Origin: Syntrophomonadaceae bacterium
GTDB taxonomy: Bacteria; Bacillota_D; Dethiobacteria; DTU022
Assembly: GCA_003564505.1 (NCBI GenBank)
Contig: PXFD01000140.1
Coordinates: 1 to 6,667, forward strand
Reading direction: 5' to 3'
DNA: 6,667 nt
Part shown: piece by piece, positions 1 through 3,651 of the stretch
How the letters are laid out: every line of letters begins with the position of its first letter
Numbering within the stretch: the stretch's first letter is position 1
Position numbers and translations under genes: made by a program
The notes under the pieces: model-generated
Told to the model about the DNA's origin: nothing
Seen by the model: only the letters and a program-made list of their open reading frames with translations
The model's database searches: none

Positions 1-389
1 CCTAAAACATTGATATTCAAAGCCTGAACTGTCAGACCGGTTGTTTTTTCAATATTATTGCGGATTTCTTTTTTAAGTTTATCGGTAGTATCAACAATTG
101 ACACACCATAATCAACAATAATATTTAAATCGATAGATACTTTATCTTCATCAACCTGGACCTTGATTCCCCTGGTCATATCCTTGCGGCCAAGTCTTTC
201 CGCTATACCACCAACTACTCCACCGCTCATTCCGGCAACACCGGGAATATCACTTGAAATTATGCTGGTAATAACCGCAATAACTTCCGAAGATATTCTT
301 ATGCTATCTCCTTCCTTGTCCTTCGATGGATCAGGCTTCAAAACAGCTTCTTCGGTACCAACATTTTCAGCTTTTTTCTTTTCAGTCAT
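1..389 (-). CDS. Asp23/Gls24 family envelope stress response protein, 3' end missing
   Basis: The frame opens at ATG 389-387 and stays open to the left window edge, giving 129 codons without a stop, so the C-terminus is missing. GGAGGT at 401-396 lies 6 nt upstream and fixes the start. Residues 1-30 are a charged, low-complexity lead (MTEKKKAENV, later KPDPSKDKEG). The Asp23 (DUF322/YloU/YqhY-like) domain follows: RISSEVIAVIT, then IPGVAGMSGG, a glycine-rich GGIAERLGRK, KVQVDEDKVSIDLNIIVDYG, and KLKKEIRNNIEKTTGLTV leading into LNINVF. Family members are small soluble proteins of Gram-positive bacteria, linked to the cell envelope or to control of lipid synthesis; the exact role of this copy is unknown. 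It has its own consensus promoter (531-559), so it appears to be transcribed separately from leuS. The family call is firm; a specific name such as asp23, yqhY or yloU cannot be chosen. Confidence 0.93.
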   Translation of the reverse strand, partial: MTEKKKAENVGTEEAVLKPDPSKDKEGDSIRISSEVIAVITSIISSDIPGVAGMSGGVVGGIAERLGRKDMTRGIKVQVDEDKVSIDLNIIVDYGVSIVDTTDKLKKEIRNNIEKTTGLTVQALNINVL

Positions 390-530: not shown

Positions 531-559
531 ATTATACAATTTGAATATAAACCTGTCAA
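531..559 (-). promoter_or_regulatory. Consensus SigA-type promoter for the Asp23-family gene
   Basis: On the minus strand TTGACA (559-554) and TATAAT (536-531) are separated by exactly 17 nt, a perfect match to the vegetative sigma factor consensus. Transcription should start near 524, giving a leader of about 135 nt before the ATG at 389. This makes the Asp23-family gene an independent unit. Confidence 0.92.
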
Positions 560-784: not shown

Positions 785-3262
785 TCAGCGCGCCACAATA
801 TTAACCAGCTTGCCCGGAACTGTGATAACCTTGATCACTTCTTTGCCGGCTAACAATTCGCCAATTCTCTCATCACTACGGGCCTGGTCGGCCAGCTGGT
901 CTTGATCGCAATCCATGGGCACTGTAATCCTGCCGCGGACTTTTCCGTTTATCTGGATAGCCACTTCCACTTCATTTTCAATCAGCTTACCGGGATCATA
1001 TTCCGGCCAGGACTGTTTATGTACACTTTCTTTGTATCCCAGCTGGTGCCAGACATCTTCTGCCAGGTGCGGTGCAAAGGGAGCCAGCAAGAGGATAGTT
1101 TTTTCCAGGGCTTCTCTTAATACTTCATGATTATGATCTGCCTGGTCAGCTGCCTGGCGGTAAGCATATATTGCATTAACCAGTTCCATGATCGCGCTGA
1201 TTGCCGTGTTGAAGTTAAAGCGCTCCTGGACATCATAAGTAACTTTTTTAATTGCAGCATGAACACTACGTTCAAGAACAGCTTCTTTTTCTCCGCTTTC
1301 AGTACTGCCTTCACCGGACGAAAATTGTTCAACACAATCAGCAGCCAGGCGCCAGATTCTGCGCAGAAAACGGTGACAGCCTTCAACTCCCTGGTCACTC
1401 CAGTCAAGATCCTTTTCGGGCGGCGAGGCAAAAAGAATAAAAAGCCTGCCAGTATCCGCTCCATACTGCTCAACAATTTCATCGGGACTGACTACGTTCC
1501 CCTTGGATTTCGACATTTTTGCCCCGTCCTTGTAGACCATGCCCTGGGCCAGAAGCCGGCTGAAAGGCTCTTCAGCGTTAATCATGCCGGCATCATGCAG
1601 CACCTTGGTGAAAAAGCGGGCATAGAGCAGGTGCAAAACAGCATGCTCAATTCCACCGATATACTGGTCTACGGGCATCCAGTAATTTGCCTCCTCACTG
1701 TTAAAGGGAGCATCTGTGCAGTCGGGGCTGGCATAGCGAAGAAAATACCAGGACGAACAAATAAAAGTATCCATGGTATCTGTTTCGCGGCGGGCATTCT
1801 CGCCACATTCAGGACAGGTTGTTTTGATAAAGCTTTCATAATGAGCCAGTCCCGGAACGCGATCGCCGGACAGCTCAACTTCCATCGGCAGTTCAACGGG
1901 AAGGTCCTTTTCAGGCACCGGTACCGTGCCGCAGCTATCACAGTAGATCATGGGAATTGGCGCACCCCAGTAACGCTGACGGGATATGAGCCAGTCACGC
2001 AGCCGGTAGGTGACCCTGAAGTTGCCCTGGTTTTGCTGTTCCAGGTATTCTGTAACCTTCTTAATTCCCTCAAGGCTGCCGGTTCTGTTAAACTGTCCTG
2101 AATTAACCATGATCCCTTCACCCACGTAAGCCTCTGTCATGGTATCACCTTCAAGGTCTTCGCCTTCCGGCTGAATTACCACCCTGACAGGCAGCTCATA
2201 TTTCCGGGCAAACTCAAAATCCCTCTGGTCATGGGCCGGAACTCCCATCACCGCTCCTGTGCCATATGCCATCAGAACATAATTGCCAACCAGGATCGGC
2301 ACCTCTTCGCCATTAACCGGATTTACTGCATAACGCCCTGTAAAGAGCCCTATTTTAGGCGCATCTTCTGAGGTCCTATCCATTTCACTTTCTTTCCTGA
2401 CCCTGTCAACAAAATTAAGCACCTCATCTTTATAATCAGTTCCTTCCACGAGCTTACCGACCAGGGGATGTTCAGGAGCAAGAACCATGTAGGTTACCCC
2501 AAACAGGGTATCTGGCCGGGTGGTAAAGGTGCGGATTTCTTCATCCGAAAAATCTTTTATGCCGAAAGCAATTTCGGCTCCTTCACTGCGCCCGATCCAG
2601 TGCTGCTGCATAATCTTAACCCTATTGGGCCAATCTTCAAGAATATCAAGATCATAGAGCAGTCTTTCTGCATAGTCTGTTATCTTCAGAAACCACTGCT
2701 CCAGTTCACGAGGCTCAACAACCGAAGAGCATCGCCAGCAAAGACCTTTTTCAACCTGCTCATTAGCCAGAACTGTAACACACTGATTACACCAGTTTAC
2801 ATTCGCTTTCTTTTTATAGGCCAAACCGCGCCGGTACATCAATAAGAATAGCCACTGCGACCAGCGATAATAGTCAGGCGCAGAGGTGTTAACTTCCCGG
2901 CGCCAGTCATAACTAACACCCAGGCGGTTTTGCTGCATCTTCATATGTTCGATATTACGGGCTGTCCATTCTGCAGGATTAACATTATTCTCAATAGCGG
3001 CATTCTCTGCCGGGAGGCCAAAAGCATCCCAGCCCATGGGGTGAATCACATTGTAGTTGCGCATCCTCAGAAAACGGGCCAATACATCACCGATTGAGTA
3101 AACTCTCATATGGCCCATATGCAATTTTCCGGATGGATAAGGAAACATTTCGAGGACATAATACTTGGTCTTGGACTCGTCTTTTTCTGCCCGGTAAAAA
3201 TCTTTTTTTTCCCACTGTTTTTGCCAGTATTCTTCAATTTGTGCAGGATCGTAATTTTTCAA
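785..3262 (-). CDS. leuS: Leucyl-tRNA synthetase
   Basis: Class I aminoacyl-tRNA synthetase that charges tRNA-Leu with leucine in the cytoplasm. The protein is 825 aa, normal for bacterial LeuRS. The HIGH signature is HMGH at residues 48-51 (after PYPSGKL). A zinc-type cysteine set lies at C158, C161, C175 and C178. The CP1 editing domain carries TTRPDT at 247-252 and the HDQRD motif around 344-348. A second cysteine-rich stretch follows, with CDSCG and CPECG motifs. KMSKS is at 582-586 and an anticodon-binding and C-terminal domain ends in LVNIVAR. The start is TTG at 3262, 9 nt behind GGAGGT (3277-3272), giving MKNYDPAQIEEYW, a normal LeuRS N-terminus. The frame continues upstream to an ATG at 3349, but those 29 codons are the T-box antiterminator and terminator. 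Expression should be induced by uncharged tRNA-Leu through the leader. No frameshift or missing motif is seen. Confidence 0.98.
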   Translation of the reverse strand: MKNYDPAQIEEYWQKQWEKKDFYRAEKDESKTKYYVLEMFPYPSGKLHMGHMRVYSIGDVLARFLRMRNYNVIHPMGWDAFGLPAENAAIENNVNPAEWTARNIEHMKMQQNRLGVSYDWRREVNTSAPDYYRWSQWLFLLMYRRGLAYKKKANVNWCNQCVTVLANEQVEKGLCWRCSSVVEPRELEQWFLKITDYAERLLYDLDILEDWPNRVKIMQQHWIGRSEGAEIAFGIKDFSDEEIRTFTTRPDTLFGVTYMVLAPEHPLVGKLVEGTDYKDEVLNFVDRVRKESEMDRTSEDAPKIGLFTGRYAVNPVNGEEVPILVGNYVLMAYGTGAVMGVPAHDQRDFEFARKYELPVRVVIQPEGEDLEGDTMTEAYVGEGIMVNSGQFNRTGSLEGIKKVTEYLEQQNQGNFRVTYRLRDWLISRQRYWGAPIPMIYCDSCGTVPVPEKDLPVELPMEVELSGDRVPGLAHYESFIKTTCPECGENARRETDTMDTFICSSWYFLRYASPDCTDAPFNSEEANYWMPVDQYIGGIEHAVLHLLYARFFTKVLHDAGMINAEEPFSRLLAQGMVYKDGAKMSKSKGNVVSPDEIVEQYGADTGRLFILFASPPEKDLDWSDQGVEGCHRFLRRIWRLAADCVEQFSSGEGSTESGEKEAVLERSVHAAIKKVTYDVQERFNFNTAISAIMELVNAIYAYRQAADQADHNHEVLREALEKTILLLAPFAPHLAEDVWHQLGYKESVHKQSWPEYDPGKLIENEVEVAIQINGKVRGRITVPMDCDQDQLADQARSDERIGELLAGKEVIKVITVPGKLVNIVAR

Positions 3263-3271
3263 GGCTATCTT

Positions 3272-3277
3272 ACCTCC
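3272..3277 (-). promoter_or_regulatory. Ribosome binding site that fixes the leuS TTG start
   Basis: GGAGGT on the minus strand, just after the T-box terminator and 9 nt before TTG 3262-3260. There is no comparable site before the upstream ATG at 3349, which abuts the tRNA CCA end. Confidence 0.9.
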
Positions 3278-3287
3278 AGGTTGAAAT

Positions 3288-3316
3288 AAAAAATCCGCCC
3301 GGTCAAGGGACGGATT
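3288..3316 (-). terminator. T-box intrinsic terminator upstream of leuS
   Basis: AATCCG and CCC (3316-3307, with a bulged T at 3310) pair with GGG and CGGATT (3300-3292) around a 6-nt loop. The T-run spans 3293-3288, overlapping the last stem bases. The CCC of the left arm is shared with the antiterminator, so the two structures are mutually exclusive, as expected for a T-box switch. Confidence 0.93.
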
Positions 3317-3336
3317 ATACCCGCGGTACCACCCTT
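3305..3336 (-). promoter_or_regulatory. T-box sequence and antiterminator
   Basis: The conserved T-box core GGGTGGTACCGCG is at 3334-3322. AAGGG (3336-3332) pairs with CCCTT (3309-3305) to form the antiterminator, leaving TGGT (3331-3328) in the bulge to pair with the free NCCA end of an uncharged tRNA. The N position fits a tRNA with discriminator A, as in tRNA-Leu. It lies 14 nt after the CCA of the tRNA-Ala gene. Confidence 0.95.
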
Positions 3337-3350
3337 CTTGGTGAAACATG

Positions 3351-3425
3351 TGGTGGAGCTGGCGGGAGTTGAACCCGCGGCCTCTTCCATGCCAAGGAAG
3401 CGCGCTCCCACTGCGCCACAGCCCC
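3351..3425 (-). tRNA. tRNA-Ala (anticodon GGC), CCA encoded
   Basis: A complete cloverleaf of 72 nt plus encoded CCA (3353-3351). The acceptor GGGGCTG pairs with CAGCTCC over 7 bp, including the G3-U70 wobble that is the alanine identity element. T8 is present; the D arm is GCGC/GCGC with A14, GG and A21 in the loop. The anticodon stem CTTCC/GGAAG encloses TTGGCAT, so the anticodon is GGC (3393-3391), reading GCC and GCU. The T arm GCGGG/CCCGC has a TTCAACT loop, and the discriminator base is A. No base suggests decay. It has no separate promoter close by, so it probably shares the leader transcript from 3616 and needs RNase P and 3' processing to be released. It lies between the sensing and switching halves of the leuS T-box. 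Confidence 0.97.
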
Positions 3426-3622
3426 TCGTTATGCTACCCGCTTGTGACCGTTATCGCCGGCCAGACGGCAGCGGCTAAATTAATTCACCGCAGCATCTCC
3501 GGGACGAGTTCAGCAGTTGTGCCTGCCGGTTTTCACCTAACACCGGCTCTCTGTAAATAGCAATATCCTGCTTAATACTTCCCTTCATTGAAACTTCTAT
3601 AGGCACCTCGAGTACATTTAAC

Positions 3623-3651
3623 ATTATATGCAGGGCCGGCAGGCTTGTCAA
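3623..3651 (-). promoter_or_regulatory. Consensus SigA-type promoter for the T-box / tRNA-Ala / leuS transcript
   Basis: TTGACA (3651-3646) and TATAAT (3628-3623) on the minus strand are 17 nt apart, a perfect vegetative consensus. Initiation near 3616 lies about 33 nt before the first specifier helix of the T-box, as expected for such leaders. It is 80 nt past the stop of the E1-like gene, in a gap without a clear terminator, so some readthrough from the upstream operon is possible. Confidence 0.94.

What the first reader, a model, noticed from the sequence alone, without database searches (positions are those of the whole stretch)
3284..3616. A complete tRNA-Ala(GGC) gene lies inside the leucine T-box leader of leuS
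Directly visible: one consensus promoter, a T-box sensing domain with leucine specifier CTC in a well-formed specifier loop, then an intact tRNA-Ala with encoded CCA, then 14 nt, then the T-box antiterminator and terminator, then leuS. In known T-box leaders the sensing and switching halves are on one continuous RNA that bridges a single tRNA. Here a foreign tRNA separates them. Because the ends of a cloverleaf meet, the tRNA could act as an extra helical arm and leave the switch geometry intact. Alternatively RNase P and 3' processing would cut the leader and uncouple sensor from switch. tRNA-Ala is upstream of the terminator, so it would be made whether or not leuS is read, using the terminated leader as a tRNA precursor. 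I do not know of a described example, but cannot search.
Basis: partly seen in the sequence, partly recalled or inferred. Interest (0 to 1): 0.87.

Follow-up and report, generated by a model that had tools for sequence, protein, structure and literature searches.

The report
Alanine tRNA gene inside leucine riboswitch
The RNA switch that is predicted to sense leucine supply and control the leucyl-tRNA synthetase gene carries, inside one of its own hairpins, a complete gene for another transfer RNA (alanine, GGC), an arrangement found in many genomes of two bacterial phyla that would make one short transcript both a sensor of one tRNA and the source of another.

Summary
On the minus strand a consensus promoter is followed by a full-length T-box leader (Rfam RF00230, 107 bits) with specifier CUC, then leuS. 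An intact tRNA-Ala(GGC) with CCA lies inside it, in the loop of Stem III of the charging-sensing domain, between the RRRxG and AA motifs.

Not an artefact. By their letters 84 of 398 Bacillota genomes (81 confirmed by ARAGORN) and about 25 of 301 Chloroflexota genomes (14 confirmed) have it. All 99 leaders examined carry tRNA-Ala(GGC) with G3-U70 and A73; 98 have CTC at the specifier place. Stem III covaries around the tRNA. The base before the tRNA is U in 93 of 99. In 73 of 80 genomes the embedded copy is the only tRNA-Ala(GGC) match. In ten such genomes, 41 other T-boxes checked hold no tRNA. Sister loci with only the T-box or only the tRNA exist.

Best reading: one leader RNA is both T-box switch and tRNA precursor. 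The tRNA precedes the terminator, so it should be made whether or not leuS is read. Response, processing and their interplay are inferred. The papers searched gave no description; two key surveys were not held.

The parts
3623..3651 (-). sigma-70-type promoter TTGACA-17-TATAAT
   Evidence: 12 of 12; a promoter-like site upstream of the specifier in 87 of 99 leaders
3303..3597 (-). T-box leader (RF00230), full model length with a 93-nt insertion
   Evidence: 107 bits, gathering score 93, E 1.2e-23
3506..3508 (-). specifier CUC (Leu) in the Stem I specifier loop, UGAA-CUC-G
   Evidence: CTC at this place in 98 of 99 leaders
3439..3443 (-). RRRxG motif (AAGCG) on the 5' side of Stem III
   Evidence: motif as described in PMC7583486 and PMC7778990 (passages)
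3426..3438 (-). 5' strand of Stem III (GGTAGCAT...) running up to the tRNA
   Evidence: covariation in relatives
3351..3425 (-). tRNA-Ala(GGC), 75 nt with encoded CCA, G3-U70, A73
   Evidence: cloverleaf with compensatory changes
3340..3350 (-). 3' strand of Stem III (CATGTTTCACC)
3338..3339 (-). AA motif on the 3' side of Stem III
   Evidence: AA at this place in 93 of 99 leaders
3325..3331 (-). T-box bulge UGGU-ACC of the antiterminator
3292..3316 (-). terminator hairpin competing with the antiterminator, then a T run
785..3262 (-). leuS, leucyl-tRNA synthetase, TTG start, GGAGG at 3277..3273
   Evidence: TIGR00396, 1107.7 bits

Best explanation
One leader RNA with two jobs. Transcription starts upstream of Stem I; the nascent leader folds as a leucine T-box that reads tRNA-Leu charging and decides, at a terminator, whether leuS is transcribed. 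The upper part of its Stem III is a complete tRNA-Ala(GGC), which is cut out of the same RNA (5' end by RNase P) and used in translation. Because the tRNA lies before the terminator, both terminated leader and read-through mRNA are tRNA precursors, so tRNA-Ala(GGC) supply should not depend on the leucine decision while leuS supply does. Because the two ends of a cloverleaf meet, the tRNA sits on Stem III like an apical loop and leaves the discriminator core (RRRxG, Stem III base, AA, UGGN bulge) as in ordinary T-boxes. Shown here: anatomy, conservation, covariation of Stem III and cloverleaf, embedded copy the only one found in most genomes searched, tRNA-Ala identity elements, strong preference for U before the tRNA. 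Inferred: leucine response, excision of the tRNA and its timing, constant tRNA output.
For: RF00230 accepts the whole leader in the window and in L006, L019, L046, L057 (114-133 bits). 99 of 99 leaders: tRNA-Ala(GGC), G3-U70, A73; 87 of 99 encode CCA. Specifier CTC 98 of 99. Stem III on 46 leaders: 88.4% of cells paired against 18-54% when slid, 33 doubly changed cells against 10.5 shuffled; on 99 leaders own-genome helix 5.4 bp against 2.4 cross-genome and 1.3 shuffled. RNAalifold on 46 leaders predicts the full cloverleaf plus the antiterminator, 15 of 29 pairs with compensatory changes. U before the tRNA in 93 of 99, against 20% T just upstream. Embedded copy the only tRNA-Ala(GGC) match in 73 of 80 genomes and in 7 of 7. 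leuS begins within 0.93 kb downstream in 90 of 99 and 2-2.8 kb downstream on the same strand in 7 more. Where the T-box is gone, a promoter (10 of 12 or better) stands 10-23 nt before the tRNA in 15 of 17 loci.
Against: No RNA data. Plain MFE folding of the window leader finds neither the cloverleaf nor the T-box fold. The window's own Stem III is weak (3 pairs, then an internal loop) and its base before the tRNA is A, the only A among 99. 7 of 99 leaders have a promoter-like site between specifier and tRNA, 5 of them (L011 of Ktedonobacteraceae and four similar Chloroflexota leaders) with a similar one at -34 to -42. RF00230 does not reach its gathering score in the kept leaders L005, L051, L011, nor in 4 of the 10 embedded leaders (G028, G280, G062, G330). 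In 17 of 58 leuS loci of one class the tRNA stays without a T-box core after it and 10 of 58 have the T-box without the tRNA, so neither part needs the other.
Confidence: 0.8

Rival explanations
1. Processing switch (an addition to the best explanation): RNase P cutting at the tRNA is itself part of regulation. It splits sensor from switch, sets a time limit for the T-box decision, and gives the read-through leuS mRNA a new 5' end, much as the B. subtilis thrS and thrZ leaders are cut upstream of their terminators.
For: U before the tRNA in 93 of 99 fits an RNase P substrate (preference recalled). Cutting of thrS and thrZ leaders upstream of the terminator by RNases J (and Y) is described in PMC3997798 (passages). 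Stem III could hold the two pieces together after cutting (inference).
Against: Nothing here tests timing. Versions of the locus without the tRNA or without the T-box exist, so the coupling is not obligatory.
Confidence: 0.3
2. Passive guest: the tRNA sits in a tolerant loop of the leader behind a good promoter and has no effect on the T-box.
For: The stem and loop of Stem III are variable in T-boxes (PMC7583486, passages). leuS T-boxes with a short Stem III hairpin and no tRNA exist in the same class (8 of the 10 tRNA-less ones).
Against: The same tRNA in the same place in 99 of 99 leaders from two phyla, and none in 41 other T-boxes checked in 10 of these genomes. One old insertion, kept because the tRNA is the only copy, would however look the same.
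Confidence: 0.4
3. The tRNA is made from its own promoter inside the leader, so the two only overlap physically.
For: Promoter-like sites between specifier and tRNA in 7 of 99 leaders, with a similar one in 5 Chloroflexota leaders.
Against: None listed in the window. 87 of 99 have a promoter-like site upstream of the specifier. Where the T-box is gone a promoter stands directly before the tRNA in 15 of 17, as if the tRNA otherwise relies on the T-box promoter.
Confidence: 0.08
4. Decoy or structural module: a tRNA-like cap of Stem III that is not used in translation.
For: Its ACCA could in principle pair with the UGGU bulge in cis (letters).
Against: Anticodon GGC, G3-U70 and A73 in 99 of 99; only tRNA-Ala(GGC) match in most genomes searched; a 3' extension would be expected to act like a charged end (inference).
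Confidence: 0.04
5. Assembly or contig artefact.
For: One relative, L139, has a fold-back at a contig end.
Against: 81 ARAGORN-confirmed genomes in one phylum draw and 14 in another, among them single-contig megabase records such as G055 and G022 (contig lengths).
Confidence: 0.005

Closest known systems
Transcriptional leucine T-box riboswitch upstream of leuS (Rfam RF00230)
   Same: Promoter, Stem I with specifier CUC, RRRxG-Stem III-AA, antiterminator with UGGN bulge, terminator, leuS downstream.
   Different: The upper part of Stem III is a complete tRNA gene. The passages seen of PMC7583486 (and its section 18) speak of insertions of unknown function; no tRNA gene is mentioned in them nor in the passages seen of PMC7778990 and PMC2494555.
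tRNA-mRNA joint transcripts such as the E. coli thrU-tyrU-glyT-thrT-tufB operon (recalled, from no call)
   Same: A tRNA is cut out of a transcript that also carries an mRNA.
   Different: There the tRNAs lie beside the gene; here the tRNA is nested inside a folded regulatory domain.
B. subtilis thrS and thrZ leaders cut upstream of the terminator (PMC3997798, passages)
   Same: Aminoacyl-tRNA synthetase leaders (T-box leaders, recalled) that are cut before their terminator.
   Different: Cut by RNases J (and Y); here RNase P would be the expected enzyme and a tRNA the product (inferred).

Membership tests
T-box riboswitch (RF00230) | covariance model match over the whole length | tested here: met
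   model 1-219, 107 bits over gathering 93
T-box riboswitch (RF00230) | specifier codon fitting the gene | tested here: met
   CUC (Leu) and leuS
T-box riboswitch (RF00230) | UGGN bulge in an antiterminator that competes with a terminator | tested here: met
   (sequence and consensus fold only)
T-box riboswitch (RF00230) | RRRxG-Stem III-AA | tested here: met
   AAGCG and AA in the window; AA in 93 of 99; Stem III covaries, though it is weak in the window itself
T-box riboswitch (RF00230) | readthrough on binding uncharged tRNA-Leu | not testable with these tools
   needs an in vitro or in vivo assay
tRNA-Ala gene | cloverleaf with anticodon GGC | tested here: met
   99 of 99 leaders
tRNA-Ala gene | G3-U70 identity pair and A73 (identity role recalled) | tested here: met
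   99 of 99
tRNA-Ala gene | processed and charged with alanine | not testable with these tools
   U before the tRNA in 93 of 99 is indirect only, and the window has A there

The most novel reading that the evidence does not exclude
A tRNA gene is a working domain of a riboswitch: its cloverleaf caps Stem III of the discriminator, and its excision by RNase P, in competition with the terminator decision, sets how long the leucine sensor stays joined to its switch and how stable the leuS mRNA is. The arrangement would be older than, or passed between, Bacillota and Chloroflexota, tying alanine tRNA supply to leucyl-tRNA synthetase control.
Probability: 0.3. Interest if true: 0.95.

Novelty: new variant of a known kind. 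Interest (0 to 1): 0.86.

Why it matters
T-boxes are textbook tRNA sensors; here the sensor RNA is also the precursor of a different tRNA, in most genomes searched the only copy found. It gives an identity to one kind of the 'curious insertions' that PMC7583486 (section 18) lists as unexplained, and it poses a direct, testable question: how a folded switch works while a processing enzyme must cut a tRNA out of it. Natural relatives without the tRNA, and relatives without the T-box, are ready-made controls.

Tried and rejected
Own-genome searches were not possible. Plain MFE folding of the window leader was uninformative. redrew the same phylum as and were not counted again.

Of its 118 loci, 23 have a tRNA overlapping the pattern. 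I kept 7 and dropped 16, which bear many kinds of tRNA (Trp, Gln, Lys, Arg, Thr, Met, Tyr, Ser, Glu, Asp, and one Ala, L040): none has an RF00230 match at gathering score and their 'core' lacks GGGTGG. That test alone does not separate them, since the kept L005, L011 and L051 also miss the gathering score; those were kept for the CTC specifier, antiterminator and terminator letters, and L005 and L011 also for leuS. Rows dropped: genomes G212, G056, G380 (letters only, not fetched) and the extra rows of G190, G062, G015, G101. In one search: 6 of 20 fetched loci have no tRNA; of the 17 unfetched rows I count 11 as real by letters.

I first took the acyl-CoA-synthetase loci for a change of regulated gene; one search showed leuS behind that gene on the same strand, and the AMP-binding domain (one locus tested). 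A GCC (Ala) specifier, which would make the tRNA its own ligand, was rejected: the window reads CTC-GTC and L051 CTC-ACC.

Literature: searches listed no paper on a tRNA gene inside a T-box. The two comparative surveys I asked for by DOI are not held, so an earlier mention there cannot be excluded. Apart from passages of PMC7778990, PMC2494555, PMC7583486 (also its section 18) and PMC3997798, papers were seen as listings only.

Two notebook entries carry slips mended here: entry 4 says 15 of 20 (it is 14), entry 5 says 48 T-box loci (two were fetched twice, so 46).

Full report
What is there. On the minus strand of the window lie, in order, a perfect consensus promoter (3651..3623), a T-box leader matching RF00230 over its whole model (3597..3303, 107 bits), and leuS (TTG 3262 to 785; TIGR00396). 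ARAGORN finds one tRNA in the window, tRNA-Ala(GGC), 3425..3351, with encoded CCA. It makes up most of the 93-nt insertion in the Rfam alignment, which falls in Stem III. Read directly, the order is AAGCG (RRRxG), GGTAGCAT..., tRNA...ATGTTTCACC, AA, then AGGGTGGTACCGCG. The specifier after UGAA is CUC, leucine. The promoter scan lists no minus-strand site between the sensing domain and the tRNA.

Where in the T-box. PMC7583486 (passages) describes Stem III with its RRRxG and AA flanks as part of the discriminator, the domain that reads tRNA charging, with the stem and loop themselves variable. So the tRNA is not between sensor and switch; it caps a helix of the switch. The ends of a tRNA meet, so the helix can carry it as it would a loop (inference).

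Conservation. In a draw of 398 genomes of the phylum of G001 (Bacillota), 87 matched; by their letters 84 are tRNA-Ala ends before a T-box core and 3 are not. ARAGORN confirms 81; the other 3 lie at contig ends: G344 a fold-back artefact, G225 cut inside the tRNA, G221 not fetched. In the phylum of G006 (Chloroflexota) 36 of 301 genomes matched; of 20 fetched loci 14 hold tRNA-Ala(GGC) and 6 no tRNA, and 11 of 17 unfetched rows look real by letters. In the class of G704 (record title: uncultured Clostridia bacterium) 0 of 148 matched. These counts are lower bounds: cores such as GGTGGTATCGCG were missed by the pattern.

The 99 leaders. The window, the 7 named loci, 78 further loci of the Bacillota draw and 13 further Chloroflexota loci make 99 (dropped: L139 and L148 without a whole tRNA, L142 and L222 as second copies of L005 and L011, and 6 Chloroflexota loci without a tRNA). 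99 of 99 carry tRNA-Ala(GGC) with G3-U70 and A73, 87 encode CCA, and AA stands before the core in 93. 98 have CTC at the specifier place; L136 has none, and its promoter stands only 64 nt before the tRNA. 87 have a promoter-like site upstream of the specifier; 7 have one between specifier and tRNA. leuS begins within 0.93 kb downstream in 90. In 6 more an AMP-binding enzyme gene comes first (Pfam tested for one) and leuS about 2 kb on, and in G077 leuS is 2.8 kb on. For L141 leuS is on another contig, and for L051's genome no leuS passed E 1e-40.

Structure. RNAalifold on 46 of the 99 leaders gives, unprompted, the whole cloverleaf (21 pairs) and the antiterminator (8 pairs) with its open TGGTACC bulge; 15 of 29 pairs have compensatory changes. 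It does not predict Stem III. Counted by name, six Stem III pairs are 88.4% paired against 18-54% in slid registers, with 33 doubly changed cells against 10.5 in shuffles. With the search freedom made equal, on 99 leaders own-genome Stem III helices average 5.4 bp, cross-genome 2.4, shuffled 1.3; at 5 bp or more 67%, 23% and 2%. 11 of 99 could not be given a Stem III by the RRRxG rule. The window's Stem III is among the weaker ones. Plain MFE folding of the window leader recovers none of this.

Is the tRNA used? Of 80 genomes with the arrangement, 73 have one tRNA-Ala(GGC) match only, the embedded one; 6 have two (G145, G340, G225, G100, G061, G203); in G344 the only match is elsewhere. In one search it was 7 of 7. 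The base before the tRNA is U in 93 of 99, against 20% T just upstream; a preference of bacterial RNase P for U there is recalled. Against a strict need for this tRNA: 4 of 51 genomes of the class of G001 show no match (G185, G737, G752, G722), though G722 does hold it by ARAGORN, so the pattern misses some.

Specificity. Ten such genomes hold 147 RF00230 matches; of their ten embedded leaders 6 pass the gathering score and 4 do not (G028, G280, G062, G330). ARAGORN on 46 of the 147 places (30 fetched plus 16 more picked among the longer matches) finds a tRNA in 5, each the leuS leader, and in none of 41 others. The remaining 101 were not checked, apart from the five other embedded leaders seen.

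History. In the class of G001, 60 genomes were searched for leuS; 58 loci were classed (G745 at a contig edge and G754 without a strong match left out): 26 tRNA inside T-box, 17 tRNA-Ala(GGC) upstream of leuS without a T-box core after it, 10 leucine T-box without a tRNA, 5 neither, some of these at contig ends. Of the 17, 15 have a promoter of at least 10 of 12 ending 10-23 nt before the tRNA and 15 a terminator-like hairpin after it by a lax rule. Of the 10, 8 have a short Stem III hairpin with the same flanks and 8 have tRNA-Ala(GGC) elsewhere. A quick leuS tree of 70 rows needs 3 changes for the tRNA-only state and 4 for the T-box-only state. Twelve rows outside the class (or the window) were added because they have the trait, the root is a midpoint and several branches are long, so loss from a combined ancestor is the reading I favour, not one shown.

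Mechanism. The tRNA stands before the terminator, so terminated and read-through RNAs both contain it. I infer a constant tRNA supply and a leucine-controlled leuS supply from one promoter. Whether cutting out the tRNA affects the decision or the mRNA is open; the thrS and thrZ leaders of B. subtilis show that such leaders can be cut before their terminators (PMC3997798, passages).

Known or new. Ten paper searches (named under tried and rejected) and the passages seen of PMC7778990, PMC2494555 and PMC7583486 gave no mention; two key surveys were not held. I call it a new variant of a known kind, not described in what I could search.

Noticed in passing
L287, L290, L311, L312, L314, L315, L318, L321, L322, L324, L326, L327, L330, L331, L333, L334, L336: No T-box core after the tRNA: in 15 of these 17 a promoter stands directly before tRNA-Ala(GGC), which is still upstream of leuS, mostly with a terminator-like hairpin behind it.
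   Followed up: partly
L317 and L332 (G753, G737): leuS T-boxes whose Stem III encloses about 85-90 nt without a recognisable tRNA; possibly a decayed tRNA.
   Followed up: no
L011, L219, L220, L223, L224: Similar promoter-like pair 34-42 nt upstream of the embedded tRNA; perhaps an internal tRNA promoter in one Chloroflexota group.
   Followed up: no
L150-L157: Leaders where Stem III follows Stem I almost at once, as if Stem II were missing (by eye).
   Followed up: no
L057, L161-L165: The leader is followed by an AMP-binding enzyme gene and then leuS.
   Followed up: partly
L136: No CTC specifier found and the promoter only 64 nt upstream of the tRNA, yet Stem III, tRNA and T-box core remain: the sensor looks eroded.
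   Followed up: no
L139:1-110: Contig end is an inverted copy of the T-box terminator region, an assembly fold-back.
   Followed up: yes
window 531-559, minus strand: A second 12 of 12 promoter, upstream of the small ORF at 3..389 (weak AmaP match below cut-off).
   Followed up: no
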